Positions 15,866-30,370 of a DNA stretch of 32,066 bases are shown piece after piece; the first letter of the stretch is position 1, and every line of letters starts with the position of its first letter. Under the pieces are notes generated by a model. It was not told the origin of the DNA and did no database searches. It saw only the letters and a program-made list of their open reading frames with translations. Origin of the DNA: Bacteroidales bacterium. GTDB taxonomy: Bacteria > Bacteroidota > Bacteroidia > Bacteroidales > F082. A program made the translations under genes and the position numbers. The DNA is taken from contig JAGCPJ010000028.1 of the NCBI GenBank assembly GCA_017965765.1, forward strand, positions 1 to 32,066, read 5' to 3'.

Positions 15866-15898
15866 TTTTCCGTTATCCGTTATCCGTTTTCCGTTTCC
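15866..15898. repeat. Heptad array after guaA
   Basis: Four 7-bp units (TTTTCCG, TTATCCG twice, TTTTCCG) plus a partial unit. Read with the gene they are ACGGAAA/ACGGATA units that begin directly after the guaA stop codon and reach to within seven bases of the next ATG. Confidence 0.85.
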
Positions 15899-17473
15899 TC
15901 ACTCCCACTCTATCGTCGCTGGTGGTTTCGACGAGATGTCGTAGCACACACGGTTGACACCTTTTACCTTATTAATAATATCGTTTGACACTTTCGCCAT
16001 GAACTCGTACGGCAGGTGCACCCAGTCGGCGGTCATACCGTCGGTAGAGATCACCGCCCTCAGGGCAATGGTATATTCGTAGCTTCTTTCGTCGCCCATG
16101 ACGCCCACCGACTTCACGGGAAGCAGCATGGTGCCGGCTTGCCAGATGCTGTCGTAGAGGTTGTCGGCCATCTCGTTGGGGTAAGAGGCACTAGGCAACT
16201 CGCAGGGCCAGTTGCGGAGGCCACGGATGAAGATGTCGTCAGCATCGCGAAGGATGCGAAGTTTCTCTTCGGTGACTTCGCCCAAGATGCGGATGCCCAG
16301 ACTCGGTCCCGGGAAAGGATGACGTCCGATGAGTTCACGTTTGATGCCCAGGGAGCGACCCACACGGCGCACCTCGTCCTTGAACAGGGTACGCAGCGGC
16401 TCCACGATCTTCAGGTTCATCTTCTCGGGGAGGCCGCCGACGTTATGGTGCGACTTGATTTTGCAGCTCGGTCCGTTGACGCTCACGCTCTCGATGACAT
16501 CCGGATAGATGGTGCCTTGGGCGAGCCAGCGGGCGCCTTCGATTTTCTGTGCTTCGGCATCGAACACCTCGATGAATGTTGAACCGATGGCCTTGCGCTT
16601 GGCTTCAGGGTCAGTGACGCCTTCCAGTTTCTTGAGAAACAGCGGTCCGGAATGGACGCCAATGACGTTCAGGCCCATCTCCTGGTAGGAGTCGAGCACA
16701 TCCTCAAACTCGTTCTTGCGCAGCAGTCCGTTATCCACGAAGATGCAGGTCAGATTGCTGCCGATGGCCTTGTTGAGCAACACGGCTGCCACGGTACTGT
16801 CCACGCCGCCTGAGAGGCCAAGGATCACCTTGTCGTCTCCCAGTTGCTTGCGGAGTGCCTCCACTGTGTTTTCCACGAAGGATGCCGGGGTCCAATCGCC
16901 CTTGCAGCCGCAGATGCCCATCGCGAAGTTCTCCAGGATCTTCGGTCCTTCCTTGGTATGGAACACCTCGGGATGGAACTGCACGGCGTAGGTCGTCTCG
17001 CCCTCGATGGTATAGGCGGCATTCTCCACATCGTCGGTGGAAGCGATCACCCTTGCCCCTTGGGGCAGACGGGCGATGGTGTCGCCATGGCTCATCCACA
17101 CCTGGCTGGTCTTGCTCACGCCTTTGAACAGCGGGCTGGCGTCATCCACCACTTGCAGCATGGCGCGACCGTATTCCCTGGCGATGGAGCCATTGACCTC
17201 ACCGCCGAAATGCTGTGCCATAAACTGGGCACCATAGCAGATGCCCAACAGCGGCAACCTGCCCTTGATGCCTTCAAGATTCACGAAAGGCGCCTTCTCA
17301 TCGCGCACCGAGAAGGGGCTGCCACTCAAGATGACGCCCTTCACGTTGTCGCCGATGGCGGGAATCTTGTTGAAGGGATGTATCTCACAATACACGTTGA
17401 GTTCACGGAGACGGCGGCCGATCAGCTGAGTCACCTGAGAGCCGAAGTCAAGGATGAGAATCATTTCCTGCAT
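15899..17473 (-). CDS. guaA: GMP synthase (glutamine-hydrolysing)
   Basis: The 524-residue enzyme converts XMP to GMP. It has the class I glutamine amidotransferase domain ([15 protein letters not shown]; nucleophile Cys in GICYGAQ; HGD; FHPEV), the ATP-pyrophosphatase loop [12 protein letters not shown], and the C-terminal dimerisation domain ending [12 protein letters not shown] start at 17473 because a TAnnTTTG box at 17489-17496 lies 15 bases upstream, leaving the longer reading (17521) outside the transcript. Residues about 421-437 (around [18 protein letters not shown]) look like an insertion relative to E. coli GuaA before the [12 protein letters not shown] segment. It leads a unit with the LysM and MORN genes. 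Confidence 0.95.
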
Positions 17474-17488
17474 GTCACAAGTTTTTTG

Positions 17489-17496
17489 CAAAAGTA
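17489..17496 (-). promoter_or_regulatory. -7 box of guaA
   Basis: TACTTTTG on the minus strand lies 15 bases before the guaA ATG. A TTGAC lies about 20 bases further upstream. The leader would be about 10 bases, leaving no room for a purine riboswitch. Confidence 0.6.
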
Positions 17497-17504
17497 AGGT
17501 TTTT

Positions 17505-17517
17505 CGTCTTAAAGACG
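17505..17517. promoter_or_regulatory. Palindrome between guaA and ychF
   Basis: CGTCTT-A-AAGACG is a perfect 6+1+6 inverted repeat lying between the two divergent -7 boxes, over the expected -33 region of guaA. It is a candidate operator; no regulator is identified. Confidence 0.35.
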
Positions 17518-17540
17518 TCAAGATTTCGTTTTCTTTTTTC

Positions 17541-17548
17541 TATCTTTG
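17541..17548 (+). promoter_or_regulatory. -7 box of ychF
   Basis: TATCTTTG fully matches TAnnTTTG, 19 bases before the ychF ATG at 17568, and supports that start over longer in-frame readings. Confidence 0.6.
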
Positions 17549-17567
17549 CACCACAAAATATAACGTT

Positions 17568-18638
17568 ATGGCACTCAATTGTGGAATCATCGGACTTTCC
17601 AGCACGGGAAAGACAACCATATTCAACTGCATCTCCAACACCAAAGCCGAGATCGGATTTGCCTCGAAATCGAACATCGGCATGTGCGAAGTCGTGGACG
17701 ACCGTCTAAAGAAAATCGACAACATCTCCCACTCCAAGCGCATCGTGCCTGCCACGGTGGAGATCGTCGATCTGCCTGGGCTGAGCAAGGGCGGTCAGGG
17801 AGTGGGCAACAAGCTCTTGGCCGAGGTGCAGACCATGGATGCCTTGATCCATGTGTTGCGTTGTTTCGACGACCCCAACATCCCGCACAGCGAAGGCAGC
17901 GTGGATCCCGTGCGCGACATGGAGCTCGTTGACTTGGAGTTGCAGGTGCGCGATTTGGACCTGGTCACCCGCAAGCTGGAACGTGTGCAGAAACTCTTGA
18001 AGAACGGCGAGAAGGACAACAAGAAGGCTTTCGACGTGCTCAGTGTTTACAAGGAAGTGCTCGAGAACATGGGCAATGCCCGCGATGCCAAAGTCGATCC
18101 CGACGACCGGAAATACATCCAGGACCTCCAACTGCTCACCGCCAAGCCCATCATCTACGTCTGCAATGTGGATGACGCCTCCGCAACCACAGGCAACAAA
18201 TACTCCGAGGCCGTGAAAGCCGCCTTGAAGGAAGGACAGGACATGCTCATCATCGCCGGAAAGCTCGAGGCCGAGATCGCCGAACTCGATGCTGACGACC
18301 GCCAGCTCTTCATGGAAGACGCAGGACTGACCGAGCCCGGTGTCAACAAACTGGTGCGCACCGCCTACCACACCTTGAACCTCCATTCGTTCTTCACCAC
18401 CGGTCCCGACGAGACCCGTGCCTGGACCATCCATGTGGGCGACACTGCTCCCATTGCTGCTGGCGCGATCCACAGCGACTTGCAACGGGGATTCATCCGC
18501 GCCGAGGTGATGAGCACCGAGGACTTCCTGCAATATGGATCGGAAGCTGCCGTGAAAGAAGCGGGGAAGTTCCGCGTCGAAGGGAAAACATACGTTGTTC
18601 AGGACGGCGACATTCTTAACATAAGATTTAATGTTTGA
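17568..18638 (+). CDS. ychF: YchF/OLA1-family P-loop NTPase, divergent G1 and switch I
   Basis: The 356-residue protein matches YchF from end to end: MALNCGIIGL, VDLPGLSKGGQGVGNKLL (switch II; E. coli has DIAGLVKGASKGEGLGN), HVLRCFDDPNI, and a C-terminal TGS-like domain with TTGPDETRAWTI, QRGFIRAEV, KEAGKFRVEGKTY and QDGDILNIRFNV. The G1 loop reads GLSSTGKTT in place of GLPNVGKST. The switch I signature FPFCTIEPN is absent (here GFASKSNIG), and the base-specificity motif is NVDD in place of NVNE. YchF proteins bind ATP and associate with ribosomes. This could be a paralogue alongside a canonical ychF elsewhere. I chose the ATG at 17568, just after a TAnnTTTG box. Confidence 0.85.
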   Translation: MALNCGIIGLSSTGKTTIFNCISNTKAEIGFASKSNIGMCEVVDDRLKKIDNISHSKRIVPATVEIVDLPGLSKGGQGVGNKLLAEVQTMDALIHVLRCFDDPNIPHSEGSVDPVRDMELVDLELQVRDLDLVTRKLERVQKLLKNGEKDNKKAFDVLSVYKEVLENMGNARDAKVDPDDRKYIQDLQLLTAKPIIYVCNVDDASATTGNKYSEAVKAALKEGQDMLIIAGKLEAEIAELDADDRQLFMEDAGLTEPGVNKLVRTAYHTLNLHSFFTTGPDETRAWTIHVGDTAPIAAGAIHSDLQRGFIRAEVMSTEDFLQYGSEAAVKEAGKFRVEGKTYVVQDGDILNIRFNV

Positions 18639-18649
18639 TTTTTAATTAA

Positions 18650-18680
18650 ATAAACCACAGATTTCACGGATTTAACGGAT
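18650..18680 (+). repeat. Left 31-bp inverted repeat of the GxxExxY cassette
   Basis: The sequence starting ATAAACCACAGATTTCACGG matches the reverse complement of 19272-19302 at 28 of 31 positions, and starts 12 bases after the ychF stop codon. Confidence 0.85.
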
Positions 18681-18839
18681 CTATTGTGACTGGATTTTTA
18701 AGGGACGCAAGCGTCCTATTTCACGGATGGAGGTAGAAATAATGGAAACCACAGATTTCACGGATTTAACGGATCTATTGTGACTGGATTTTTTAGGGAC
18801 GCAAGCGTCCTATTTCACGGATGGAGGTAGAAATAATGG
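18652..18839 (+). repeat. 94-bp tandem duplication upstream of the GxxExxY gene
   Basis: Copy 1 (18652-18745) and copy 2 (18746-18839) differ at one base. Each contains AACCACAGATTTCACGGATT, a small hairpin AGGGACGCAAGCGTCCT (18701-18717, 18795-18811), a GGAGG site and an ATG. Only copy 2 opens the GxxExxY frame; copy 1 opens a short frame that stops at 18781-18783. Confidence 0.92.
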
Positions 18840-19249
18840 AAAAAGAGGGATTGATATACAGCAACGAAACTTATCAGATCATTGGAGCGGCCATGGAGGT
18901 TCACAAGACCTTGGGATTCGGCTTTTTGGAAGCTGTTTATCAAGAAGCGATGGAAATCGAGTTAGCTAGAAGAAACATCCCCTTTATCTCACAAAAAAGA
19001 ATTCAAATACAATACAAGGAGGTCACACTTAACCAATATTATATAACAGATCTTTTCTGTTTTGACAAAATCGTTGTAGAGTTAAAAGCGGTTTCCACCA
19101 TTCTTCCCGAACACGAAGCTCAATTATTAAACTATTTAAAAGCGACAAAAACAAAATTGGGTTTATTGTTTAATTTTGGCGAAGAGAGCTTAACTTTCAA
19201 ACGATTTGTGAACACCCCCACCCCCATTCGTGCCAATCCGCAGCTTTAG
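18836..19249 (+). CDS. GxxExxY protein (PD-(D/E)XK-like)
   Basis: The 137-residue protein belongs to the GxxExxY family, grouped with the PD-(D/E)XK nuclease superfamily but of unproved function. Seen are IIGAAMEVHKTLG (16-27), the signature GFLEAVYQEA (29-38), a D72...E82-L-K84 pair (ITDLFCF...VVELKAV) resembling the nuclease core, and HEAQLLNYLKATKTKLGLLFNFG (93-115). I chose the ATG at 18836 because GGAGG lies eight bases before it; an in-frame ATG at 18821 overlaps that site. The last residues, after FKRFVN, run into flanking repeat-type sequence. The gene sits inside an inverted-repeat cassette between ychF and idi. Confidence 0.86.
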   Translation: MEKEGLIYSNETYQIIGAAMEVHKTLGFGFLEAVYQEAMEIELARRNIPFISQKRIQIQYKEVTLNQYYITDLFCFDKIVVELKAVSTILPEHEAQLLNYLKATKTKLGLLFNFGEESLTFKRFVNTPTPIRANPQL

Positions 19250-19271
19250 CTGCCTAATCCTCAATCTAAGA

Positions 19272-19302
19272 ATCCGTAAAATCAGTGAAATCCGTGGTTT
19301 AT
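19272..19302 (-). repeat. Right 31-bp inverted repeat of the GxxExxY cassette
   Basis: The sequence ending GAAATCCGTGGTTTAT is the inverse of 18650-18680 with three mismatches. It lies 22 bases after the GxxExxY stop and 23 bases before idi. Confidence 0.85.
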
Positions 19303-19325
19303 AAAACAAAAACCGTAATAAAAAC

Positions 19326-19835
19326 ATGGAACATGTAGTTCTCGTCAACGAGCAAGACCAGCAGATCGGTATCATGGAGAAAATGGCCGCGCATATCGTG
19401 CCCCGTCTCCATCGTGCCTTCTCCATATTCATCTTCAACTCCAAAGGCGAATTGCTGTTACAACAACGTGCCTTTAGCAAATACCACTCCCCCGGCCTTT
19501 GGACCAATACTTGCTGCAGCCATCCCTGCGACGGCGAGACCTTGGAGCATGCAACGTCGCGACGGCTGAGGGAAGAGATGGGCATGCAATGTGACATGCA
19601 CGAGGTCTTCACCTTTATTTATAAAGCCCCCGTCGGACTCGGCCTCATCGAGCACGAATTCGACCATGTGTGGTTCGGCAAGACTGACGAAGAACCTCGC
19701 ATCAACACCGAGGAAGTTGCCTCATGGAAGTACATGGCGTTTGCCGACATCGAAACCGACATCAAAGCCCATCCCGAGCTATACACTGAATGGTTCAAGA
19801 TCTCTTTTGACGAGATCCTCCGCCACTGCCAATAA
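19326..19835 (+). CDS. idi: Isopentenyl-diphosphate delta-isomerase (type 1)
   Basis: The 169-residue Nudix-fold enzyme interconverts isopentenyl and dimethylallyl diphosphate for isoprenoid synthesis. TNTCCSHP (60-67) aligns with E. coli TNSVCGHP, so Cys64 is the likely catalytic cysteine and His66 a metal ligand. EHEFDHVW (109-116) supplies the acidic residues. The Nudix-like helix GETLEHATSRRLREEMGM is present. Length is typical of bacterial type 1 enzymes. No TAnnTTTG box is seen between it and the cassette, so its promoter may be upstream of, or replaced by, the inserted element. Confidence 0.94.
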   Translation: MEHVVLVNEQDQQIGIMEKMAAHIVPRLHRAFSIFIFNSKGELLLQQRAFSKYHSPGLWTNTCCSHPCDGETLEHATSRRLREEMGMQCDMHEVFTFIYKAPVGLGLIEHEFDHVWFGKTDEEPRINTEEVASWKYMAFADIETDIKAHPELYTEWFKISFDEILRHCQ

Positions 19836-19872
19836 TCATTTCTCGGTAACGCCATTTTGTTAATAAATAATA

Positions 19873-19927
19873 ATAGTAAATATATTTACTATCAATGTGC
19901 TTACTATATATATTTTTACTATTTTTG
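19873..19927 (+). promoter_or_regulatory. Porin promoter with palindrome and 15-bp-spaced repeats
   Basis: TATTTTTG (19920-19927) fits the -7 consensus. Upstream are a perfect 20-bp palindrome (19873-19892, ATAGTAAATA/TATTTACTAT) and three copies of TTACTAT at 19886, 19901 and 19916, spaced exactly 15 bp. The last copy overlaps the -7 box. The arrangement suggests operator sites, but the DNA is very AT-rich. Confidence 0.55.
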
Positions 19928-19976
19928 CCGCATCTTCAATAGAAAACGAGAGAAAACACATTAATTATTATCTATT

Positions 19977-21050
19977 ATGAAACGTAACTTACTTTTAATC
20001 ATTGGGATTATTGCAATCTTATTCCCCATGAGCCTTACCGCACAAGAAGGCCCGAAAGTTTCAGGATTTGTCCAAGGCATTGCTCAAATGAACATCAAAG
20101 AAGGCACTAGCGACACGAAAACCATCATCGACAACACTTTCCGTGCCCGTCGTGTCCGTATGTCACTCGACGGCAGTCTCGCCAAGGGTCTGACTTACAA
20201 GATCCAGGGTGACTTCGTCCGGAAGCCCATGCTGGTGGACGTCTATCTCAAGTACAAAGTCAACGATGCTTTTGCCATCCAGGCCGGTCAGTTCAAGACC
20301 CCCTTCACCATGGAAAGCCCCATCAACCCTGTCAACCTCGAGATCTTCGACTATGGCGAGAGTGTCCAGAAGCTCAGCGGCTATAGCGATGTCTGCGGCG
20401 TGGGTTCCATCGGTCGTGACTTGGGTATCATGATCACGGGCAGCTTCCTCAAGCCTGAAGGACTTGATTTCAACCTGTTCACCTACAACCTCGGTGTTTT
20501 CAACGGCAATGGCGCCAATGAGTTGGACAACAACAACCGCAAGGACCTTGTCGGTCGCCTCGAAGTCCATCCCTGGCTTCAGCACCTCACTTTGAGCGGT
20601 TCCTTCTACTACGGTTTCTATGACAATGAAAGCATTCACAATGGCGTCCGCAACCGTTGGGCTGCCGGTGCTCAATACAGTGATGGCGACATCATGGTTC
20701 GTGCCGAATACCTCAGTGGTGCCACGGGCTACATGAGTTCTACGTTAGACTCCATTGGCAACGTCATCAGCACCGAACAACTCAAGAGGATGAGTCAGGG
20801 TTTCTATGCCGTGGCCGGTTACAACTTCCGTTTGGGCAAGGACAAGAGCCAGAAACTGATGCCCGTCCTCCGTTACGAGCACTTCGCTGCCGATGCAGCC
20901 TTGAACAATGGTGGCACCAACTACTACACCGTAGGCATCAACTACTGGCCGCTGAAGTCCGTCAACTTCAAGCTCGACTATTCATTGATTCAGCCTGAAG
21001 CAGGCAACAACACACACCGCATTGTTGCAATACTGAGTTACAAATTCTGA
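19977..21050 (+). CDS. Porin, phosphate-selective porin O/P family
   Basis: The 357-residue outer-membrane protein has a signal peptide (about 1-22, ending SLTAQ) and OprO/OprP-family features: VSGFVQGIAQ, FRARRVRMSLDGSL, YKIQGDF, DVYLKYKV, AIQAGQFKTPFTMESP, and a final aromatic residue in LSYKF. The alternating beta-strand pattern fits a barrel of about 16 strands. Substrate cannot be read from sequence; family members pass anions such as phosphate. It is followed after 91 bases, occupied by a repeat element, by a YeiH-type transporter, suggesting an anion link. Its promoter region carries candidate operator sites. Confidence 0.9.
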   Translation: MKRNLLLIIGIIAILFPMSLTAQEGPKVSGFVQGIAQMNIKEGTSDTKTIIDNTFRARRVRMSLDGSLAKGLTYKIQGDFVRKPMLVDVYLKYKVNDAFAIQAGQFKTPFTMESPINPVNLEIFDYGESVQKLSGYSDVCGVGSIGRDLGIMITGSFLKPEGLDFNLFTYNLGVFNGNGANELDNNNRKDLVGRLEVHPWLQHLTLSGSFYYGFYDNESIHNGVRNRWAAGAQYSDGDIMVRAEYLSGATGYMSSTLDSIGNVISTEQLKRMSQGFYAVAGYNFRLGKDKSQKLMPVLRYEHFAADAALNNGGTNYYTVGINYWPLKSVNFKLDYSLIQPEAGNNTHRIVAILSYKF

Positions 21051-21126
<76 letters not shown>

Positions 21127-21141
21127 AAAATCACCTTTGTT

Positions 21142-22473
21142 ATGAAAAACATCTCAAATCTTTGGAAAAAAGAGGATTGGTTGGCTGTATGGATCGGCTT
21201 CATCGTCATCGCCATCGGCTGTGTGGCTGTCCTCACCAACTGGTTCGATTTCTCCGCTGCCAAGTTCGGCACCTGGCACTGGTGGGAAAACGTGGAAGCT
21301 AAGAAGTCGTTGGGTGCCCAATTCAACGGCGAGTTTTGGATCAAGTTGCTGCGCACCTTCCTGGTGCTTGGCATCCTCTTTGGCATCGGCATCAAGTTGC
21401 AGGGCGAGAAGGTCGGAAAATTCATCCCGGCTTTCATTGTGCTGTTCATCATCTGCATCATCGTTAGGATGATCAGTGCCGAATACACCCTTAAGATGTA
21501 CCTCGAATGGGCTTTCTGGGCTTTGCTCATCGGTTTGCTCATTTCCAATACCGTAGGAACGCCACAATGGCTAAAACCCGCCATCCGCACGGAGTTCTAC
21601 ATCAAGACCGGTTTGGTCATCATGGGTTTCTCGGTGCTGTTCAGCAACATCGCCAAGTTCGGTCTCTACGGTCTCGGCATCGCTTGGATCGTGACCCCCA
21701 TCGTCATCATCTTCATGTGGTGGCTGGGCACCAAGGTGCTGAAGATTGACAACAAGCCGTTGGTCATCACCTTGGCTTCGGCCACTTCGGTGTGCGGTAC
21801 CAGTGCCGCCATCGCCACGGGTGCTGCTGCCAAGGCAAAGAAGGAAGACCTTTCGTTGGCCATCTCCATCTCCATCATCTTCACCATCCTCATGATGGTG
21901 TTCGAGCCCATGATCATCCGTTGGGCTGGCATGAACCAGATGATGGGCGGCGCCCTCATCGGCGGTACCGTTGACTCGACAGGTGCTGTGGTGTTGGCTG
22001 GCGAAGCCCTCGGCGAGGAAGCTGCTCAGGTCGCTTCTTTGGTGAAGATGATCCAGAACATCCTCATTGGCTTCATTGCCTTCTTCGTGGCCATCTTCTT
22101 CGCCACCAAGGTCGATAAGACCGACGACTCCAAGGTCGGTGCCGGCGAGATCTGGAACCGCTTCCCGAAGTTCATCATCGGTTTCTTCGTTGCTTCGTTG
22201 GTCGCTTCCTTCATCATCAAGCCCATGGGCGGCGATGTGAAGGCCATCAACGGCGTGCTCGACCAATACAAGAACTGGGCCTTCGTGCTGGCCTTCACCA
22301 GCATCGGCCTCGACACCAACTTCAAGAGCCTCTTCAAGCAGATGCAAGGCGGCAAGGTGCTTTGGCTGTACATCCTGGGACAGCTCTTCAACATCGCCCT
22401 CACGCTGTTTGCCGTGTGGCTGCTGCTCTCTGGTGTCCTCTTCAAAGTACCGACCCTGGATATGTTCCAATAA
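21142..22473 (+). CDS. YeiH-family putative sulfate exporter
   Basis: The 443-residue inner-membrane protein has about ten or more hydrophobic segments and the family motif SVCGTSAAIATGAAAKAKKEDLSLAISI, close to the YeiH (UPF0324) consensus. GGTVDSTGAVV and TSIGLDTNFKSL are also typical. A hydrophilic N-terminal loop (about residues 40-65) and a loop with KTDDSKVGAGEIWNRFPKF make it longer than E. coli YeiH (about 349 residues). The family is annotated as sulfate exporters, but the transport evidence is thin. The downstream small gene overlaps its stop by one base. Confidence 0.88.
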   Translation: MKNISNLWKKEDWLAVWIGFIVIAIGCVAVLTNWFDFSAAKFGTWHWWENVEAKKSLGAQFNGEFWIKLLRTFLVLGILFGIGIKLQGEKVGKFIPAFIVLFIICIIVRMISAEYTLKMYLEWAFWALLIGLLISNTVGTPQWLKPAIRTEFYIKTGLVIMGFSVLFSNIAKFGLYGLGIAWIVTPIVIIFMWWLGTKVLKIDNKPLVITLASATSVCGTSAAIATGAAAKAKKEDLSLAISISIIFTILMMVFEPMIIRWAGMNQMMGGALIGGTVDSTGAVVLAGEALGEEAAQVASLVKMIQNILIGFIAFFVAIFFATKVDKTDDSKVGAGEIWNRFPKFIIGFFVASLVASFIIKPMGGDVKAINGVLDQYKNWAFVLAFTSIGLDTNFKSLFKQMQGGKVLWLYILGQLFNIALTLFAVWLLLSGVLFKVPTLDMFQ

Positions 22474-22778
22474 TGGACAAAAACCACATCATCTTCAAAG
22501 TGATTACCATCATCGTGGTGGTAATCACTTTGTTTTTGGCCGGCTGGATCATGGCCAACCGGCTAGGCCTCGTTGAAGGCTACGATTTCGGTGCCGGCGC
22601 CTATTTCTATGCCGACATCCCCACCGAACAATACTCCGAAATCGTCAACGAAGACGCTTACCAGACCCCCGTCCCGAAATGGATTTTCTACGTCCTTTTC
22701 TTCGCCTGGGGCTGGCTGATGTGGCGACTGTGGGTGAGAGTGGAAAAAGTAAAACGGAAAACGGAAAACGGAAAGTGA
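22473..22778 (+). CDS. Small membrane protein coupled to the YeiH-type transporter
   Basis: I do not recognise this 101-residue protein. It has membrane segments at about residues 9-28 (KVITIIVVVITLFLAGWIMA) and 70-88 (WIFYVLFFAWGWLMWRLWV), with a polar segment between them. Its ATG overlaps the transporter stop in TAATG, so translation is probably coupled and a subunit role is possible. The last residues (KRKTENGK) are encoded by a 7-bp tandem array read in all three phases, so the true ancestral C-terminus is probably earlier. Confidence 0.8.
   Translation: MDKNHIIFKVITIIVVVITLFLAGWIMANRLGLVEGYDFGAGAYFYADIPTEQYSEIVNEDAYQTPVPKWIFYVLFFAWGWLMWRLWVRVEKVKRKTENGK
22754..22774. repeat. Heptad array at the 3' end of the small membrane gene
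   Basis: Three perfect ACGGAAA units lie inside the final codons and end one base before the TGA stop codon. Confidence 0.85.
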
Positions 22779-22798
22779 ATTAATAGTTTTCCACTTTC
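22771..22798. terminator. Weak hairpin between convergent genes
   Basis: GAAAGTG (22771-22777) can pair with CACTTTC (22792-22798) between the small membrane gene and trmH. There is no strong T-tract, so a terminator role is tentative. Confidence 0.3.
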
Positions 22799-23498
22799 AA
22801 CTTTCCACTCCATCAAACTCCGGATGGAGTTCCTTGAATTTCCTTTCGTATTGCCGAATTCTGTTCAGGGTGCGTCGCGACCATTCGAGGCGCACTTCGT
22901 CTTTTTCCTCTTCGGAAAGATGCCAATTCACATCGTCCATCTCGTGAAGGCGGCGGGTCAAGGTATAGACCAGCAAGGCCGCTGAGACGCTGATGTTATA
23001 GCTCTCCGTGAAGCCGTACATCGGGATGCGCAGGAATCGGTCGGCGTGTTCCATCACATAATCCGTGATGCCCGTCTTCTCTGTACCGAACACCAAGGCC
23101 ACGGGTTTGTCCAAGGGCAAAGTCTCCGGCGTGAAGTCATCCCGATGCGGACAGGTGGCCACGATCTGATAGCCTTTGGCCTTAAGCTGTTCCAGAACCG
23201 TGGGAGTGTTGAAATCAAGCTCATTATAGCGGTGGATGTCCAACCATTTCGTGCTGCCCATCACCACATCAGGATTGATGTCGAAGGTGTAGTTGTTCTC
23301 GACGATATGGATATCCTGCACGCCGGTGAGGTCGCAGCTTCGCAACACGGCACTGGCATTGTGCGGCTGGAAGATGTCCTCCAACACCACGGTGAGATGG
23401 CGGGTGCGATAAGCCAGCACTTCCTCGAAACGCTGCTTGCGTTCATCGGAGATAAACTGGTACAAAAAATCAAGTAAAGCCTTGTCTCTGGGGGTCAT
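22797..23498 (-). CDS. trmH: tRNA (guanosine-2'-O)-methyltransferase (SpoU/TrmH family)
   Basis: The 233-residue SPOUT methyltransferase has the three family motifs: HNASAVLRSCD (motif 1), LVFGTEKTGIT (motif 2) and ESYNISVSAALLVYTLTRRL (motif 3, the knotted AdoMet site). The short N-terminal region (DKALLDFLYQFISDERKQRFEEVL) and the Arg-rich C-terminal extension match TrmH, which methylates G18 of tRNA, rather than rRNA methyltransferases. I start at 23498 because the family begins about there and a TAnnTTTG box lies 18 bases upstream; longer in-frame readings cross that promoter. Confidence 0.9.
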   Translation of the reverse strand: MTPRDKALLDFLYQFISDERKQRFEEVLAYRTRHLTVVLEDIFQPHNASAVLRSCDLTGVQDIHIVENNYTFDINPDVVMGSTKWLDIHRYNELDFNTPTVLEQLKAKGYQIVATCPHRDDFTPETLPLDKPVALVFGTEKTGITDYVMEHADRFLRIPMYGFTESYNISVSAALLVYTLTRRLHEMDDVNWHLSEEEKDEVRLEWSRRTLNRIRQYERKFKELHPEFDGVES

Positions 23499-23516
23499 TT
23501 CGCTGGTTTTGTCCTG

Positions 23517-23524: not shown

Positions 23525-23564
23525 AAAAAAACATGTTTTTTGTTGATACAAACATAGAATTTCC

Positions 23565-23572
23565 TATTTTTG
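23565..23572 (+). promoter_or_regulatory. -7 box of the TPR gene
   Basis: TATTTTTG lies about 38 bases before the ATG at 23611, with GTTG 19 bases upstream of the box as a partial -33 element. Confidence 0.55.
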
Positions 23573-23610
23573 CAGTCCGAAAAATTTGATTAAAATAATA
23601 TTGAAAAGAT

Positions 23611-24309
23611 ATGGCTAACAAGAAAAAAGAACTAGAAGCTAAAGGCGAAGAAAGACTGGAAAACGTTGAATCAGCATTGGGCAAGACCGAACAATGGATT
23701 GAGGAGCATCAGAAACTCATCTACGGCATCATCGCCGCCGTCATTGTCATCGCCGGTATCATTTGGGGTCTCAAGGCTCTGAACGACAGGAAGAACAATG
23801 CCGCAAGCAAGGAAATCTTCACCGCTCAGAAGTATTTTGAAAAGGAATCATACGAAGCCGCCCTCAACGGTGATGGCAACTATATGGGTTTCACTGAGGT
23901 TTACGACCAGTACAGCCGCACCAAGGTCGGTAAGCTTGCCGCCTATTACGCTGGCATCAGCTACATGAAACTCGGCAAGTACAACGAGGCCATCGACTAC
24001 CTGAAGAAGTACACCATCAATGACGATGTTTTGGCTCCTTTGGCACTCGGTGCCATTGGCGACTGCTACATGGAGTTGGACGACATCAACAGTGCCGCCG
24101 GCTATTATGACAAGGCCGCCAACAAGGTCAAGAGCGATTTCACGGGTCCCATGTACCTCACCAAGGCTGGTTTGACGTATGAAATCATCGGCGACTACAA
24201 CAATGCGCTGAAATGCTACAAGACGTTGAAAGCCGATTATCCGCAAAGCAACGAAGCCTTTGAGATCAGCAAGAACATCGCCAACATCGAAGAAAAACTG
24301 AAGAAATAA
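23611..24309 (+). CDS. TPR membrane protein (YfgM-like)
   Basis: The 232-residue protein has a charged cytoplasmic N-terminus, one membrane segment (about 37-54, LIYGIIAAVIVIAGIIWGL) and a periplasmic part with tetratricopeptide units (AAYYAGISYMKLGKYNEAIDYL, ALGAIGDCYMELDDINSAAGYY, AGLTYEIIGDYNNALKCY). This plan resembles E. coli YfgM, a SecYEG-associated periplasmic chaperone partner, and similar Bacteroidota proteins. The function here is inferred only. It is a single-gene unit with its own promoter and a strong terminator before fmt. Confidence 0.88.
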   Translation: MANKKKELEAKGEERLENVESALGKTEQWIEEHQKLIYGIIAAVIVIAGIIWGLKALNDRKNNAASKEIFTAQKYFEKESYEAALNGDGNYMGFTEVYDQYSRTKVGKLAAYYAGISYMKLGKYNEAIDYLKKYTINDDVLAPLALGAIGDCYMELDDINSAAGYYDKAANKVKSDFTGPMYLTKAGLTYEIIGDYNNALKCYKTLKADYPQSNEAFEISKNIANIEEKLKK

Positions 24310-24329
24310 GCTTCGTACTTGAACCTAAG

Positions 24330-24362
24330 AAAGCCTGATTCTCACGAACCAGGCTTTTTTTT
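24330..24362 (+). terminator. Rho-independent terminator after the TPR gene
   Basis: AAAGCCTG pairs with CAGGCTTT across a 12-base loop, followed by a run of T, 20 bases after the stop. Confidence 0.88.
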
Positions 24363-24390
24363 ACCAACAAAGTTGTGAATCCCGCATATC

Positions 24391-25347
24391 ATGAAAATCA
24401 TCTACTTCGGCACGCCTGAATTCGCCGCTTCACAGTTGGAGGCCATACTCCAAGCAGGTTACGAGGTAGCCGCTGTCGTGACCATGCCCGACAAGCCGGC
24501 AGGCCGTGGAAAGAAAATCCAATTCTCCGAGGTGAAAAAGACTGCCTTGGAACACCAGCTGCCGCTTCTTCAGCCAGAAAAACTCAAGGATCCCGACTTT
24601 TTGCAGGAGCTGGAATCGTTCCAAGCCGACTTGTTCATCGTGGTCGCCTTCCGGATGTTGCCTGCGGCCGTTTGGAAGATGCCACGGCTGGGCACCTTTA
24701 ACCTCCACGCTTCTCTCCTACCCCAATACCGTGGTGCCGCACCCATCAACCATGCCATCATCAACGGCGAGACCGTCACTGGACTCACCACCTTCTTCCT
24801 CAACGAGGAAATAGACAAAGGAGCGGTCATCTTACAGGAAAGCGTCGCCATCCGTCCCGATGAGACCGCCGGAGAACTGCATGACACGTTGATGCACTTG
24901 GGAAACAGGATGGTGGTGGAAACCATCCGTCGCATTGAGACGAACCAGATCCAGCCCATCACCCAAGAAGCCCTCGCCCAAGGCGCAGTCCTAAAGGAAG
25001 CGCCCAAGATCTTCAAGGACTTCTGTTACATCCCGTGGGAAAAGGACTGCAAGGCTATCTATAACCTCATCCGCGGCCTATCACCCTATCCAGCGGCTCA
25101 TACCACGCTACGTTCCGACACCGGTGAGGTCCTTGAACTCAAAGTCTATGCTTCGGAAATGGAATTGGGCCAGCCCATGGAGCCTTGCGGAACTGTCGTC
25201 ACCGACAACAAGACCTTCTTGAAGATCGCAGCCAAGGACGGTTTCATCCATCTGACCACCGTTCAACAGGCTGGGAAAAAAGCCATGGAAACCGCTGATT
25301 TCCTAAGAGGATTACACTTTTTAGGAGCTTGGAAAGCCGGAAAATGA
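24391..25347 (+). CDS. fmt: Methionyl-tRNA formyltransferase
   Basis: The 318-residue enzyme formylates initiator Met-tRNA using 10-formyl-tetrahydrofolate. The N-terminal domain shows MKIIYFGTPEFA and the catalytic set N104, H106 (FNLHASLLPQYRGAAPI) and D142 (LNEEIDKG; more usually DxGxDTG-like). The C-terminal OB-type tRNA-binding domain starts near YIPWEKDCKAIYNLIRGLSP. The length is normal. No TAnnTTTG box is visible in the 28 bases between the preceding terminator and the ATG, so the promoter is unclear or weak. Confidence 0.95.
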   Translation: MKIIYFGTPEFAASQLEAILQAGYEVAAVVTMPDKPAGRGKKIQFSEVKKTALEHQLPLLQPEKLKDPDFLQELESFQADLFIVVAFRMLPAAVWKMPRLGTFNLHASLLPQYRGAAPINHAIINGETVTGLTTFFLNEEIDKGAVILQESVAIRPDETAGELHDTLMHLGNRMVVETIRRIETNQIQPITQEALAQGAVLKEAPKIFKDFCYIPWEKDCKAIYNLIRGLSPYPAAHTTLRSDTGEVLELKVYASEMELGQPMEPCGTVVTDNKTFLKIAAKDGFIHLTTVQQAGKKAMETADFLRGLHFLGAWKAGK

Positions 25348-25395
25348 AATTATTTATACAGTTATTTTCATTTTTGCCCGTTTTTAGGCCTTTTT

Positions 25396-25438
25396 TTTTG
25401 CAAAATTATTTGCAAATTAGATTTTTACATTATCTTTG
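25396..25438 (+). promoter_or_regulatory. Promoter of the HU gene with two palindromes
   Basis: TATCTTTG (25431-25438) is preceded by TTTG (25409-25412) at 18 bases. Two 10-bp palindromes, TTTTGCAAAA (25396-25405) and ATTTGCAAAT (25408-25417), start 12 bp apart, the second over the -33 element. The leader is about 38 bases. The rest of 25348-25482 is AT-rich without other signals. Confidence 0.6.
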
Positions 25439-25482
25439 TGTCGGAAAAATCCTTTTAACATTAACCTTAAATTACTATTACT

Positions 25483-25749
25483 ATGAACAAAGCTGAATTA
25501 ATCGATGCACTCGCAGCAAAAGCTGGAATGACCAAAGTTGAATCAAAGAAGGCTCTTGACGCCATGATGGACATCGCCAAAGCTGAAATGAAGAAGAAAG
25601 AAGGCAAGATCGGCCTCGTTGGCTTCGGCACCCTCTACACCGCTACTCGTCCTGCAAGAAAGGGCCACAACCCGAGAACCGGCAAATCCATCAAGATTGC
25701 TGCCAAGAAGGTCGTGAAGTTCAAACCCGCTGCTAATTTCCTGAAATAA
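25483..25749 (+). CDS. HU-family DNA-binding protein
   Basis: The 88-residue protein is a standard single-domain HU/IHF-family nucleoid protein. It has MNKAELIDALAAKAGM, the helix LDAMMDIAKAEM, GLVGFGTLYTATRPARKGHNPRTGKSI (the DNA-binding arm with the Asn-Pro tip) and AAKKVVKFKPA. Length is close to the E. coli HU length of 90. It bends and packages DNA as a dimer. It has its own promoter and a very strong terminator, in line with high expression. Confidence 0.96.
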   Translation: MNKAELIDALAAKAGMTKVESKKALDAMMDIAKAEMKKKEGKIGLVGFGTLYTATRPARKGHNPRTGKSIKIAAKKVVKFKPAANFLK

Positions 25750-25775
25750 TCATTCCAGGGATTTACAACCCACAT

Positions 25776-25812
25776 CATAGAGGCGCAAAGGTTTGCGCCT
25801 CTATGTTTTTTT
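25776..25812 (+). terminator. Strong terminator after the HU gene
   Basis: A perfect 14-bp stem (CATAGAGGCGCAAA with TTTGCGCCTCTATG) and a run of T follow the HU stop by 26 bases. The distal arm includes the recQ stop codon. No T-tract follows on the minus strand, so it should act on hup only. Confidence 0.93.
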
Positions 25813-27714
25813 TAGGGACAGCACATCGTCCCTGACCGTCAAGGTCCCGTTGTCGATCATCCAGCGGATTACCTCCATCACCGCCTCCTCCTCGAAAGCG
25901 TGGCAGGTTTGCAACACCTCGCCTATCTTCAACTGACGGTCACACAAGACACCCTTCAACAGGGTGCAGATTTCTCCAAATTCGTCATTACCGACGGAAC
26001 GAGCACCATGGCTGACACAGACATCGCATTTCCCGCAAGCCTTTCCATGTTGTTCGTTAAAATACCTAAGCAATTGAACGCTACGGCATTCCTGGTTGTT
26101 GTTCACATAATCCTCCACGGCCCTCACCCGTTCCTCCGCTTCTCGTTTCCGGTCCGAATAGTTTTCCTTGGACAAGGCAAAATAACGCGTATCAAGCATT
26201 TCAGTCACCAATTGCAGCTGCGGTTTGTCTTGACGGGGGATGTATGACAGGAAGTTGTATTCCTCCATCTTTTTCAACAACGCCCTAAGCTGTTCGGCAC
26301 CCATCCCAGTCTTTGTCGCCGCCACCTCCTCGTTGAATCTCACATAATCGCTCAACACGCCTGGGAGAGACCTTAGCATGTATTTCACCAAGGGGTCGAA
26401 CTGAGGGAAGGCCACCTGAAAACGATAGAGGTCGTCGCGGGACGACTTGATCCACAACCTGGAAGTGTCGTCGAAACCTTCCGAGAGCGCCAAAATCCCT
26501 TCCTTTTCCAGGATTTTCAAGGTACTGTAAACCGCCCTGAGGTCGAAACCATATCTTTTGGAGAAATCCACCATGTCGAAAGGATACATCATCCCCTCCC
26601 CTGTCCCGACAGGCACCCTCAAGTAGTTGCCGATGGCGTTGTAGATGGCTTTGATGCGTTCCAGTTCCGGGAAGGACTGTTTCAGATGATCCTCCAGTTG
26701 TCGCAGGTCGGCCTCGGAGACCAACAAGAAAGCTTCCGAAGGCTGTAAGTCGCGGCCTGCCCTGCCTGCTTCTTGGAAATAAGCCTCGATGCTGTCCGGC
26801 AAGTCAAGATGGATCACCAAGCGCACGTCAGGTTTGTCGATGCCCAGTCCAAAGGCATTGGTGGCGGCCATGACCTTGACCTGACCACGCATCCATAGAT
26901 TCTGCCGTTCGTCACGAATCCTGGCTTCCAGTCCAGCATGGTAGAAGGTAGCGGGAATACCTACCGAGTTCAACCAATCCGCGATCACCTGAGTCCGTTT
27001 CCTGTTCCTGACATATACGATGGCACTGCCTTGGCTCATGGCATGGAGTTTTCGGTACAACACCCCGAGCTTATCAGGCTCATGATAGACATTATAGGTG
27101 ACGTTTTTCCTTTCGAAGCTGCTTTGGAACACGTTATTCGCCTTGAATCCCAGGCGAAACTGGATATCGTCAACCACCTTGGCCGTAGCGGTGGCCGTGA
27201 GTGCCAGCACAGGGGTACGAGGGATAAAGGGCCGGATCTCTGCGATTTTCAGATAAGGCGGCCGGAAGTCGTAGCCCCATTGCGAGATACAATGCGATTC
27301 ATCCACTGCCAGCAGGTTCACCTTCATCCGCTTGATGGCCTCCAGGAACTGCGTGGTCTGCAAACGTTCCGGAGAGACATAGAGGAACTTCAGCCGTCCA
27401 AAGACCGCCTGGTTGTACACCAATTCCACTTGGTCCGGATGCATTCCCGAGAAGATGGCGGCGGCTGGAATCCGTTTGGCGACAAGATGCGCCACCTGGT
27501 CCTTCATCAAGGCAATCAGCGGTGTCACGACGACGCACACCCCATCCATGGCCATGGCCGGAACCTGGAAACAAATCGACTTGCCACCACCGGTAGGAAG
27601 CAGTGCCAAGGTGTCACGGCCATCCAGGACCGAGTCCACGATTTCCTCCTGCAAGGGACGGAAGGAAGGATAGCCCCAATACTGTTTCAAAACCGCTCTT
27701 GAACGCACACTCAT
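25801..27714 (-). CDS. recQ: RecQ-family ATP-dependent DNA helicase
   Basis: The 637-residue superfamily 2 helicase unwinds DNA 3' to 5' in recombination and repair. It has Walker A PTGGGKS (40-46), VVTPLIALMKDQ, the DESH box (138-141), ALTATAT, FGLGIDKPDVR and QEAGRAGRD. A RecQ zinc-binding region follows with four cysteines (ECRSVQLLRYF...ACGKCDVC) and a winged-helix end. No HRDC domain is present, so this is the short Bacteroidota type; a longer RecQ may exist elsewhere. I start at the ATG at 27714 because a TTG reading at 27738 overlaps the TATCTTTG promoter box. Its TAG stop lies in the HU terminator stem. Confidence 0.93.
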   Translation of the reverse strand: MSVRSRAVLKQYWGYPSFRPLQEEIVDSVLDGRDTLALLPTGGGKSICFQVPAMAMDGVCVVVTPLIALMKDQVAHLVAKRIPAAAIFSGMHPDQVELVYNQAVFGRLKFLYVSPERLQTTQFLEAIKRMKVNLLAVDESHCISQWGYDFRPPYLKIAEIRPFIPRTPVLALTATATAKVVDDIQFRLGFKANNVFQSSFERKNVTYNVYHEPDKLGVLYRKLHAMSQGSAIVYVRNRKRTQVIADWLNSVGIPATFYHAGLEARIRDERQNLWMRGQVKVMAATNAFGLGIDKPDVRLVIHLDLPDSIEAYFQEAGRAGRDLQPSEAFLLVSEADLRQLEDHLKQSFPELERIKAIYNAIGNYLRVPVGTGEGMMYPFDMVDFSKRYGFDLRAVYSTLKILEKEGILALSEGFDDTSRLWIKSSRDDLYRFQVAFPQFDPLVKYMLRSLPGVLSDYVRFNEEVAATKTGMGAEQLRALLKKMEEYNFLSYIPRQDKPQLQLVTEMLDTRYFALSKENYSDRKREAEERVRAVEDYVNNNQECRSVQLLRYFNEQHGKACGKCDVCVSHGARSVGNDEFGEICTLLKGVLCDRQLKIGEVLQTCHAFEEEAVMEVIRWMIDNGTLTVRDDVLSLKKT

Positions 27715-27735
27715 GATGTCGTGAATAATCTTATC

Positions 27736-27743
27736 CAAAGATA
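27736..27743 (-). promoter_or_regulatory. -7 box of recQ
   Basis: TATCTTTG on the minus strand, 21 bases before the ATG at 27714, with CTTG 19 bases further upstream as a near -33 element. Confidence 0.55.
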
Positions 27744-27837
27744 GCGATTATTTTCAACGGGACAAGCGGTTTTCAAGAAAAAGTTGTCTTCCGGCAAATG
27801 ATTTTCATGTCTTCTTTCATTAGTCCGAAACTTTTGC

Positions 27838-27845
27838 TATCTTTG
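27838..27845 (+). promoter_or_regulatory. -7 box of typA
   Basis: TATCTTTG lies 35 bases before the typA ATG; TTTC at 19 bases further upstream is a near -33 element. recQ and typA are divergent. Confidence 0.55.
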
Positions 27846-27880
27846 TCAGTTATTTTAAAAACAAAGACCGTTTTTATAAA

Positions 27881-29695
27881 ATGCAGAGTATCAGAAACAT
27901 AGCTATTATCGCACACGTTGACCACGGCAAAACCACCTTGGTTGACCGCATTTTGTACCAATCAAAGCTGTTCAAGGAATCGGACGAAGCTCCTGGACAA
28001 CTCATCCTTGACAACAATGATTTGGAGCGTGAGCGTGGCATCACCATTTTGTCAAAAAACGTTTCTGTCCGATATAAAGATGTCAAGATCAACATCATCG
28101 ACACTCCTGGCCACGCCGATTTCGGCGGCGAGGTGGAACGTGTGTTGAACATGGCTGACGGCGTGTTGCTGTTGGTGGATGCTTTCGAAGGTCCCATGCC
28201 GCAGACCCGCTTTGTGCTTCAGAAAGCCATTGAGTTGGGGTTGAAGCCCATTGTGGTCATCAACAAGGTTGACAAGCCCAACTGCCGTCCCGATGAAGTG
28301 CAGGAAGCCGTATTCGACCTGATGTTCAACTTGGGCGCTACCGAAGACCAGCTGGACTTCCCCACTGTCTTTGGATCCTCCAAGCAAGGCTGGATGTCCA
28401 ACGACCCCAGCAACGTCACCAGCGATGTCTCCTATCTACTCGACACCATCATCGACACCATCCCAGAGGCAAAATACGAGGAAGGCACTCCGCAGTTGCT
28501 CATCACCTCGTTAGACTACAGTTCCTACGTAGGACGTATTGCTGTGGGACGTCTGAAACGAGGCATCCTGCAAGCCGGTATGAACGTATCATTGGTAAAG
28601 CACGACGGAAGCGTAGTAAAATCAACAATTAAAGAACTCTATACCTTCGAAGGACTGGGCAAGGAGCGCACCAAGAAGCCCATTGAAGCCGGCGACATCG
28701 TCGCCTTGATGGGTCTGGAAGATTTCGAGATTGGCGACACCGTGGCTGACTATGAGAATCCCGAGGCACTGCCTCCCATCAAAGTTGACGAGCCCACCAT
28801 GAGCATGCTCTTCACCATCAACAACTCGCCGTTCTTTGGCCGCGAAGGGAAATATGTCACTTCACGCCACCTGCGCGAGCGCCTTTACAAGGAAACCGAG
28901 AAGAACCTTGCCTTGAAGGTCGAAGACACCGACTCGCCTGACTCCTTGATGGTCTATGGCCGTGGCATCTTGCACCTCAGCATCCTGGTGGAGACCATGC
29001 GCCGTGAAGGATACGAGTTCCAGTTGGGACAGCCCAAGGTCATCATCAAATACATTGACGACGTGAAATGTGAGCCTATCGAGTGCCTCACCGTGCTGGT
29101 ACCCGAGGACTTCTCCGGTCGCGTCATCGAGCAAGTCAGCGCCCGCAAGGGTGAGATGACCCAGATGGAACCCAAGGGCGACCGCATGTGCCTCGACTTC
29201 GACATCCCGTCAAGAGGTCTCATCGGGTTGCGCAACGTCCTGCTCACCGTCACCGAAGGCGAAGCCATCATCTCGCACCGTTTCAAGGCCTACGAGCCTT
29301 GGAAAGGCGATATGCCAAGCCGCAACACCGGCGCCCTCATCTCCATGGAGACTGGCCAAGCCATCCCATACGCCATCTGGAAACTGCAGGACCGCGGCAT
29401 CTTCTTCGTCAACCCCAACGAAGACGTGTATGCCGGACAAGTCATCGGCGAGAACACCCGCTCCAACGACATCGTCATCAATGTCTGCAAGACCAAGCAC
29501 CTCACCAACGTGCGCGCTTCTGGCTCCGACGAGGCCATCCGTCTCATCCCACCCGTACGTTTCTCCCTCGAGGAATACATGGAATACATCCGCGACGACG
29601 AGTACCTCGAAGTCACCCCGAAAAGCTTGAGGCTGAGAAAGATCATCCTCGACGAACTAGAGCGCAAACGTGCCAATAGAAACAATGAAAACTGA
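27881..29695 (+). CDS. typA: Translational GTPase TypA/BipA
   Basis: The 604-residue ribosome-binding GTPase affects ribosome assembly and stress or cold adaptation. Its GTP motifs are AHVDHGKTT (11-19), [13 protein letters not shown] and NKVD. EF-G-like domains follow and then the BipA-specific C-terminal domain ([50 protein letters not shown]). Length is typical. The start follows a TAnnTTTG promoter. The last codons and the TGA stop run into a 7-bp tandem array. The next gene, an unrelated lipoprotein, starts 44 bases later. Confidence 0.96.
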
Positions 29696-29718
29696 AAACG
29701 GAGAACGGAGAACGGAGA
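29691..29718. repeat. Heptad array over the typA stop
   Basis: Four 7-bp units (ACTGAAA then ACGGAGA three times); the first contains the typA TGA stop codon. Confidence 0.85.
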
Positions 29719-29739
29719 ACTATTAAAAACATAAATAAC

Positions 29740-30342
29740 ATGAAAAGAATAATTAGAATTATCGCTATTGTGATTCTGATGGCATCATTCACGGCTTGTG
29801 AACAACTGACACAGATTGTCAACCAAGCTGCGCAGGTCATCAACCTGAAGAACTGCGAATTCGATGTCAGTGGCATCAACAACATCAACATGTTGGGGGT
29901 CAACCTCAGCAGAAACATGACCTTAGGCGACCTGAATGCCGCACAGGTCATCAACGTAACCAATTCGCTGATGAACAGGAAGCTGCCGGTGACCTTCAAT
30001 GTCAACATCGATGTCGATAACCCCAACAGCATTGCCGCTTCCTTGGGCAAGATGGACTACATCATCGCCTTGAACAACAAACAGATCATCAGCAGTACCT
30101 TCACACAGGGATTCAGCATCCCTGCGAATTCCAAGGGCAAGATCAGCATCCCGATCAGCACCGACCTGTTCCAGCTATTCAGCGGCGAAACCAAAGACGC
30201 CGTGTTGAACCTGGCCTTCAAGTTGGCAGGCGCCAAGAGCGATCCCGTCAACCTCGGTGTCAAGGTGAAGCCTTACATCAAGGTCAACAACCAATCCCTA
30301 GCCTATCCCGATTTCATCACCATCAACAAAGTGCTGAATTAA
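29740..30342 (+). CDS. LEA/WHy-like lipoprotein
   Basis: The 200-residue protein has a lipoprotein signal with FTAC, lipidated Cys at residue 20. The mature part is a beta-rich domain with alternating polar and hydrophobic strands and NIDVDNPNSIAASLGKMDYIIALNNKQI, which resembles the LEA type 2/WHy fold found in some bacterial envelope proteins. KGKISIPISTDLF and LGVKVKPYIKVN support this fold. Function is not known. It lies between typA and gcvP on the same strand with no promoter box seen before it. A heptad array starts directly after its stop. Confidence 0.82.
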   Translation: MKRIIRIIAIVILMASFTACEQLTQIVNQAAQVINLKNCEFDVSGINNINMLGVNLSRNMTLGDLNAAQVINVTNSLMNRKLPVTFNVNIDVDNPNSIAASLGKMDYIIALNNKQIISSTFTQGFSIPANSKGKISIPISTDLFQLFSGETKDAVLNLAFKLAGAKSDPVNLGVKVKPYIKVNNQSLAYPDFITINKVLN

Positions 30343-30370
30343 ATGCGGAATTAGGAATGCGGAATGCGGA
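30343..30370. repeat. Heptad array after the LEA-like lipoprotein gene
   Basis: Four 7-bp units (ATGCGGA, ATTAGGA, ATGCGGA, ATGCGGA) begin at the first base after the TAA stop. No promoter consensus or glycine riboswitch-like structure is seen in the 73 bases before gcvP. Confidence 0.85.

What the first reader, a model, noticed from the sequence alone, without database searches (positions are those of the whole stretch)
15866..30370. 7-bp tandem arrays at gene 3' ends
Six loci carry short arrays of 7-bp units (ACGGAAA, ACGGATA, ACGGAGA, ATGCGGA or ATTCCGA types): 11131-11222, 15866-15898, 21051-21123, 22754-22774, 29691-29718 and 30343-30370. Three start at the first base after a stop codon (guaA, porin, LEA-like lipoprotein). 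One contains the stop (typA), one ends a base before the stop (small membrane gene) and one lies inside the last codons (NUDIX). None is found upstream of a promoter. The genes are unrelated, so stop-proximal placement looks like a property of the repeat. Heptanucleotide tandem repeats are known in some cyanobacteria; whether this version is described in Bacteroidales I cannot say. Possible roles include mRNA 3'-end processing, slippage hotspots or insertion targeting.
Basis: partly seen in the sequence, partly recalled or inferred. Interest (0 to 1): 0.72.

Follow-up and report, generated by a model that had tools for sequence, protein, structure and literature searches.

The report
Seven-base repeats starting at stop codons
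In a group of uncultured gut-type bacteria, short runs of a seven-letter DNA unit often begin exactly at the stop signal of genes, also sit in-frame inside some proteins, and change their spelling between species while keeping length seven, which points to an unknown repeat-making process tied to gene ends.

Summary
Confirmed, and larger than reported. In 772 kb of this genome period-7 arrays number 126, against 1 in shuffled sequence. The purine-rich strand of the array begins within 5 nt of a same-strand stop codon in 45 of 126 (random intergenic placement 3.7; antisense 6). This also holds in long gaps and for arrays that contain no stop. Paired arrays run purine arm then pyrimidine arm, 16 to 1. 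34 of 126 arrays lie deep inside genes, in frame. Congeners carry different seven-base units at the same stops and protein loops, and a sister pair differs by whole units. One 28-base core recurs 28 times. Best reading: dispersed heptanucleotide satellites that grow by slippage and fold-back copying, spread, and persist where translation survives, with an unexplained sense-strand bias at stops. Heptanucleotide repeats are a known kind and a near-stop rule is published for Xanthomonas; exact stop adjacency with unit turnover was not found in nine literature searches. Transposase and reverse-transcriptase genes do not clearly track the arrays. Function is untested.

The parts
11131..11225 (-). 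Degenerate heptads (CGGAATT / ATGCGGA types, two arms) in the C-terminal extension of the NUDIX gene
   Evidence: TRF row 11178-11194, sequence, domain end at residue 124 of 183, fold no better than shuffles
15862..15896 (-). Heptad array (ACGGAAA/ACGGATA) 0-2 nt after the guaA stop, purine strand in sense
21043..21080 (+). Purine arm (AATGCGG type) starting at the porin stop
   Evidence: other units at the same stop in congeners
21095..21126 (+). Pyrimidine arm (AATTCCG) pairing with 21043-21080
   Evidence: hairpin -28.8 kcal/mol, z -4.0
22742..22774 (+). Heptad array (ACGGAAA) as the last codons of the small membrane gene
22788..22809 (+). Pyrimidine arm (TTTCCAC) before the stop of the convergent SpoU-type gene
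   Evidence: fold z -2.8
29681..29720 (+). Heptad array (ACGGAGA) containing the typA stop
   Evidence: AGAATTT, AGTTAAA, AAGAATT or AGTTAAG arrays, or none, at the same stop in congeners
30343..30372 (+). Heptad array (ATGCGGA) directly after the LEA_2 lipoprotein stop
   Evidence: seven congeners instead overlap stop and next start

Best explanation
Dispersed heptanucleotide satellites. A seven-base unit, purine-rich on one strand, expands and contracts by whole units (replication slippage) and is sometimes copied back on itself, giving a hairpin with the purine arm first. Copies spread to new places and the unit is rewritten over time, so that species carry different units at the same positions. 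Copies last where they do not break a protein: at the stop codon with the purine strand in sense, or inside a protein loop when the frame is kept. Shown here: the period, the positions, the strand rule, the hairpin polarity, exact dispersed copies, whole-unit differences between sister species, and different units at the same stops and loops. Inferred: slippage and fold-back as the process, how copies spread, and that most copies are neutral. Not explained: why the purine strand starts at the stop even in long gaps.
For: 126 arrays of period 7 against 1 shuffled and 50 against at most 12 for other periods in 22 congeners. Five of 20 sister-species gaps are clean one- or two-unit changes, two of them the two arms of one hairpin. 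Purine-then-pyrimidine order 16 to 1. A 28-nt core occurs 28 times and one unit order makes up 11 of 27 four-unit arrays where 10% is expected, so copies spread. Porin arrays of four congeners repeat the conserved last codons and stop, so local birth also occurs. In-frame arrays in conserved genes with different units in congeners.
Against: Tolerance alone does not place arrays flush at stops in long gaps: 41 of 42 sense arrays in tandem gaps lie within 25 nt of the stop although in 10 the next start is 90 nt or more away. Slippage alone does not explain exact copies at unrelated genes. No spreading machinery was found. In G022 only 7 of 22 sampled arrays are flush.
Confidence: 0.5

Rival explanations
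1. Functional 3'-end element: the array works in RNA, as a hairpin at transcript ends, or, read from the other strand, as a regularly spaced pyrimidine tract on which Rho could load and stop antisense transcription before it enters the gene (the Rho part is my inference from recalled knowledge).
For: Flush sense placement independent of gap length; 2 of 81 divergent gaps; strong two-arm hairpins, -43 to -49 kcal/mol for the three tested outside the window; near-stop coding-strand placement also reported for Xanthomonas heptads (PMC4692102).
Against: Canonical terminators are about as frequent with arrays as without (gaps of 40 nt or more: 12 of 54 against 83 of 259). Arrays lie in frame inside genes. 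Orthologous stops often lack arrays. Most stops in this genome have none.
Confidence: 0.2
2. Mobile insertion: small palindromic elements moved by an enzyme, like REP or MITE elements, with a heptad core.
For: 28 exact copies of a core; other dispersed palindromic repeats occupy the same protein loop in congeners; in-frame palindromic inserts are known from Rickettsia (recalled).
Against: Array ends vary in phase and length; no constant end or target duplication was seen, though not tested systematically. Y1 transposase present in 7 of 9 array-rich and 35 of 51 other congener genomes: no relation. Unit differs while the site stays.
Confidence: 0.13
3. Stop-linked 3'-end extension with a seven-base step: ends of sense strands formed at translation stops are extended from a short template, may fold back, and are copied into the chromosome.
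For: One process would give flush stops, sense purine strand, purine-then-pyrimidine hairpins and a fixed period with changing unit.
Against: No template or enzyme identified. Reverse transcriptase genes are in 7 of 9 array-rich and 25 of 51 other genomes, and absent from array-rich G009, which is 84% complete. In-gene arrays need another entry route.
Confidence: 0.06
4. Pure gap-filling: arrays land anywhere and survive only beside the stop because gaps are short.
For: Median gap without an array is 34 nt (tandem) and 29 nt (convergent); with arrays, gap minus array is 45 and 39 nt.
Against: Flushness persists with next starts up to 583 nt and facing stops up to 525 nt away, and it is sense-specific.
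Confidence: 0.1

Closest known systems
G-rich heptameric repeats of Xanthomonas and Nostoc, Rehm et al. 2015 (PMC4692102; passages and section 13 read)
   Same: Seven-base units, many loci, inverted pairs, mostly within 50 bp of the stop on the coding strand including overlaps with the stop
   Different: There the repeats also lie close upstream of ORFs on the non-coding strand and Nostoc prefers the non-coding strand; the main units here have no run of three G; exact adjacency, unit turnover and in-frame turnover are not in what I read
TAACTGA direct repeats of Beggiatoaceae, Cyanobacteria and five Bacteroidetes, MacGregor 2015 (PMC4679880; abstract, passages, sections 3 and 12 read)
   Same: Seven-base tandem repeats, patchy over species, some overlapping stops; a TAACTGA-type array also occurs in G033
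   Different: One unit, mostly just upstream of start codons in the main genome; here many units, at stops
Short tandemly repeated repetitive (STRR) sequences of cyanobacteria (recalled; listings only)
   Same: Seven-base intergenic tandem repeats
   Different: Stop adjacency and species-specific units not known to me for them
Rickettsia palindromic elements (recalled; listings only)
   Same: In-frame palindromic inserts in conserved genes
   Different: Here the insert is a heptad array whose unit differs between species; no sequence relation tested

Membership tests
Heptanucleotide tandem repeats (long simple sequence repeats) | Tandem unit of seven bases far beyond chance | tested here: met
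   126 against 1 shuffled
Heptanucleotide tandem repeats (long simple sequence repeats) | Change by whole units between close relatives | tested here: met
   5 of 20 gaps of 7 nt or more between G033 and G054
Quadruplex-forming heptads (Xanthomonas type) | G-tract of three or more per unit | tested here: not met
   AAAACGG, AATGCGG and AACGGAG, 96 of 126 arrays, lack GGG
Quadruplex-forming heptads (Xanthomonas type) | Placement near stops on the coding strand | tested here: met
   45 of 126 within 5 nt
TAACTGA repeats | Unit TAACTGA just upstream of starts | tested here: not met
   Units and positions differ
REP/MITE elements | Constant ends or target duplications | tested here: inconclusive
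   Start phase varies among stop arrays; no systematic test of ends
REP/MITE elements | Associated Y1 transposase | tested here: inconclusive
   Present in the genome but unrelated to array load
Rickettsia palindromic elements | In-frame insertion in conserved genes | tested here: met
Rickettsia palindromic elements | Sequence relation to the described families | not tested
   none
Intrinsic terminators | GC hairpin followed by a U tract, serving array-bearing ends | tested here: inconclusive
   Canonical terminators 12 of 54 with arrays, 83 of 259 without, in gaps of 40 nt or more; the hairpins themselves were not scored for termination

The most novel reading that the evidence does not exclude
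Heptads are written at gene ends by a stop-linked 3'-end extension reaction with a seven-base step: ends of sense strands formed when translation stops are extended from a short template, sometimes fold back to make the purine-then-pyrimidine hairpin, and are copied into the chromosome. A change of template changes the unit while period, strand and position stay.
Probability: 0.06. Interest if true: 0.92.

Novelty: new variant of a known kind. Interest (0 to 1): 0.62.

Why it matters
Why seven is a favoured length of long bacterial tandem repeats, and whether such repeats do anything, is open. This genus offers natural replicates: the same stop codons and protein loops filled with different seven-base units in different species. 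That makes the strand rule, the birth site and the step length testable, and it suggests that in-frame heptads in conserved proteins are real sequence, since orthologs in several genomes carry them.

Tried and rejected
Chance: rejected by the shuffle and the reversed-pattern control (404 against 1 hits). ORF artefact, in which units holding stop codons end the frame: rejected, because arrays without stops show the rule (41 sense, 3 antisense of 95). Gap-filling alone: weakened by long gaps. Rfam: no match in the window at gathering thresholds. Y1 transposase: in 7 of 9 array-rich genomes (15 or more hits) and 35 of 51 others. Reverse transcriptase: in 7 of 9 and 25 of 51, a weak lean, not tested for significance. 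Array load of most congeners is known only from one unit's pattern or 20-40 kb, so both comparisons are weak. Replacement of terminators: slightly fewer with arrays, no clear difference. A hunch that some in-gene arrays follow an out-of-frame TGA was not tested. Gene calls come from my own simple caller.

Papers: PMC4679880 and PMC4692102 were read in part, as named above; all others were seen in listings only. Nine searches listed no paper on exact stop adjacency with unit turnover of heptads; the library holds open-licence papers only.
Full report
What was checked. The six loci are real and placed as described, with small corrections. The window lies in a 2.0-Mb genome of 78 contigs, 76% complete. 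The best named match of its GMP synthase is from a Bacteroidales bacterium of roe deer colon, 88% identical (the window's own records may be left out there). Genes were called with a simple hexamer-scored caller of mine: starts are uncertain, stops follow the reading frame.

How unusual. I took 40 stretches by contig number (740 kb) and added the window: 772,205 bases, 90% called coding. Period-7 arrays at score 9 or more number 126, against 1 in one Markov shuffle; periods 4-6 and 8-13 give 0 to 16, periods 15-20 give 3 to 17, and period 14 gives 66 as a harmonic. The commonest units are AAAACGG (66), AATGCGG (18) and AACGGAG (12). In 650 kb from 22 same-genus genomes, period 7 gives 50 arrays and periods 5, 6, 8, 9, 10 and 11 give 1, 7, 5, 12, 4 and 0, with further units such as AATTAAG, AATTTAG, AGTTAGG and AGGTGAG; in 125 kb from seven order-level genomes, two genomes have 7 arrays and five have none. 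The AACGGAA type is patchy: 404 hits here, 316 in G022, 133 in G019, 100 in G036, 52 in G009, 50 in G050, 22 or fewer in the other congeners. A few genomes have many hits to the reversed control, which is itself a heptad: 102 in G008, 42 in G046, 30 in G071, 23 in G052.

The stop rule. Take the purine-rich strand as forward. Its 5' end lies within 5 nt of a same-strand stop in 45 of 126 arrays (random placement in intergenic space: mean 3.7, maximum 10 in 300 trials); its 3' end lies within 5 nt of an opposite-strand stop in 6 (null 3.4). Of 95 arrays without a stop codon after their first unit, 41 are flush (6 nt) in sense and 3 in antisense; of the other 31, 7 and 5. For 67 arrays near a stop, agreement of base i with i+7 is 0.28-0.42 before the stop, 0.52 at the stop and 0.74-0.87 over the next 18 nt. 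In tandem gaps 41 of 42 sense arrays lie within 25 nt of the stop, while the next start is 90 nt or more away in 10 and up to 583 nt; in convergent gaps 20 of 21 arrays lie within 17 nt of their own stop, with the facing stop up to 525 nt away. Against the rule, 12 arrays in tandem gaps are antisense: five within 9 nt of the stop and seven 24-59 nt past it, where a second arm would be. Congener stretches: 15 of 19 tandem sense arrays within 25 nt and 12 of 13 convergent arrays within 21 nt; flush within 5 nt 16 of 50 in sense and 2 in antisense. Arrays occur in 51 of 440 tandem, 14 of 78 convergent and 2 of 81 divergent gaps (gaps with a stop against divergent, p = 0.004).

Check by exact sequence. 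A 28-nt core occurs 28 times in the genome, reversed control 0. From these places 22 distinct arrays were recovered: 16 flush with a sense stop, none antisense only, 2 in coding sequence, 4 other. In G022, the first 30 of 130 places gave 22 distinct arrays: 7 flush, none antisense only, 9 in coding sequence, 6 other. Random positions have a coding stop within 8 nt in 21 of 2000. The rule is therefore strong here and weaker in G022.

Hairpins. Neighbouring arrays within 80 nt are ordered purine-pyrimidine in 16, the reverse in 1, and same-strand in 3. A reverse complement of the array end (13 of 17 or better) is found downstream in 34 of 124, upstream in 0, reversed control 0. Three two-arm arrays outside the window fold at -43 to -49 kcal/mol (z -7 to -8.3). 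In the window the porin pair gives -28.8 (z -4.0) and the membrane-gene pair -20.2 (z -2.8); the guaA single arm folds weakly (-3.0) though better than its shuffles; typA is weak; the NUDIX and LEA_2 loci are no better than shuffles.

Arrays inside genes. 34 of 126 arrays lie at least 60 nt inside a called gene, in 21 genes; for 30 of the 34 the coding score exceeds 10 on both sides. Ten of the 21 genes were scanned and all ten match Pfam families, among them FtsK, a Mur ligase, the DNA polymerase III clamp loader, a class-V aminotransferase (SufS-like, a recalled name), a GDP-mannose dehydratase and DcuC. Orientation in genes is 21 sense and 13 antisense.

Turnover. In the aminotransferase, the loop between LLATSLG and VLITAMEHH was aligned in 30 loci and read as DNA in 14. 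This genome and G022 carry AACGGAA hairpins, G009 GTGGAAA, G019 CTCTCAA, G035 CTCTCAC, G054 TTCTCCG; several others carry other, partly palindromic inserts; G033, G037 and G050 have a short plain loop. In the Mur ligase, 30 loci were aligned and 12 read as DNA: nine carry heptads of at least five kinds, G012 and G037 none, G004 is unclear. At the window's stops, compared with up to ten congeners, typA is followed by AACGGAG (here), AGAATTT (G004), AGTTAAA (G033, G054), AAGAATT (G022) or AGTTAAG (G050) arrays, by an unclear one in G009, and by none in four; the porin by AATGCGG (here), AAATTCT (G004, G022, G033, G054), CTTCTGA (G019), AAGACAG (G050, G035) or none (G012, G037). The LEA_2 gene overlaps its neighbour's start in seven species and is separated by a gap in four, three of them with heptads. 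The AAATTCT arrays repeat the conserved last codons and stop, which suggests local birth; exact cores at unrelated genes suggest spread.

Recent change. G033 and G054 are 95% identical in this region. Over 113,378 aligned columns in ten blocks (89-95% identical) there are 20 gaps of 7 nt or more. Five are clean one- or two-unit changes in heptad arrays, two of these being the two arms of one hairpin; one more is a 42-nt heptad-like stretch; the rest are in coding or other sequence or unclear. At the membrane-gene gap the two species carry wholly different repeats, one with period 8.

Mechanism. Whole-unit slippage is supported by the sister pair; fold-back copying by the polarity and the one paired-arm change; spread by exact cores. 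None of these explains the sense-strand adjacency to stops in long gaps. Function is not excluded: terminators are not clearly replaced, and many orthologous stops lack arrays. Transposase and reverse-transcriptase families do not clearly follow the arrays.

Relation to the known. MacGregor (PMC4679880) cites Mrazek 2007 for heptanucleotides as the commonest class of longer tandem repeats and for slippage linked to the polymerase. Rehm et al. (PMC4692102) found heptads near stops on the coding strand in Xanthomonas and Nostoc, a parallel in distant phyla, but also near starts on the other strand, which is not seen here (2 of 81 divergent gaps). The main units here lack GGG, so quadruplexes cannot be the general reason for such placement.

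Noticed in passing
window 5521-5620: Inverted pair of a 36-nt dispersed element (AACCCCGAAGGGCTCACCGACCGAAYGGGAGGTAA type); 24 hits to its 19-mer core with up to 3 mismatches in the genome, reversed control 1; copies sit beside heptads inside the MBOAT and Mur-ligase genes.
   Followed up: partly
window 18652-18842: A 94-nt unit duplicated in tandem at 98% identity, containing 9-nt CACGGATTT-type repeats, upstream of the small gene at 18836.
   Followed up: no
window 11677-11728: An 8-nt array (GATTTAAA, 6.5 copies) beside a canonical terminator-like hairpin at 11743-11770.
   Followed up: no
L131, L137, L138, L144, L148 (aminotransferase loop): Congeners carry non-heptad, partly palindromic inserts in the same protein loop that holds heptads in others.
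   Followed up: partly
L313-L316 (G033 and G054): A 48-nt palindromic insert is present in one of two sister species.
   Followed up: no
G008, G046, G071, G052: The reversed control pattern, itself a heptad (GGCAAAA), has 102, 42, 30 and 23 hits in these genomes.
   Followed up: no
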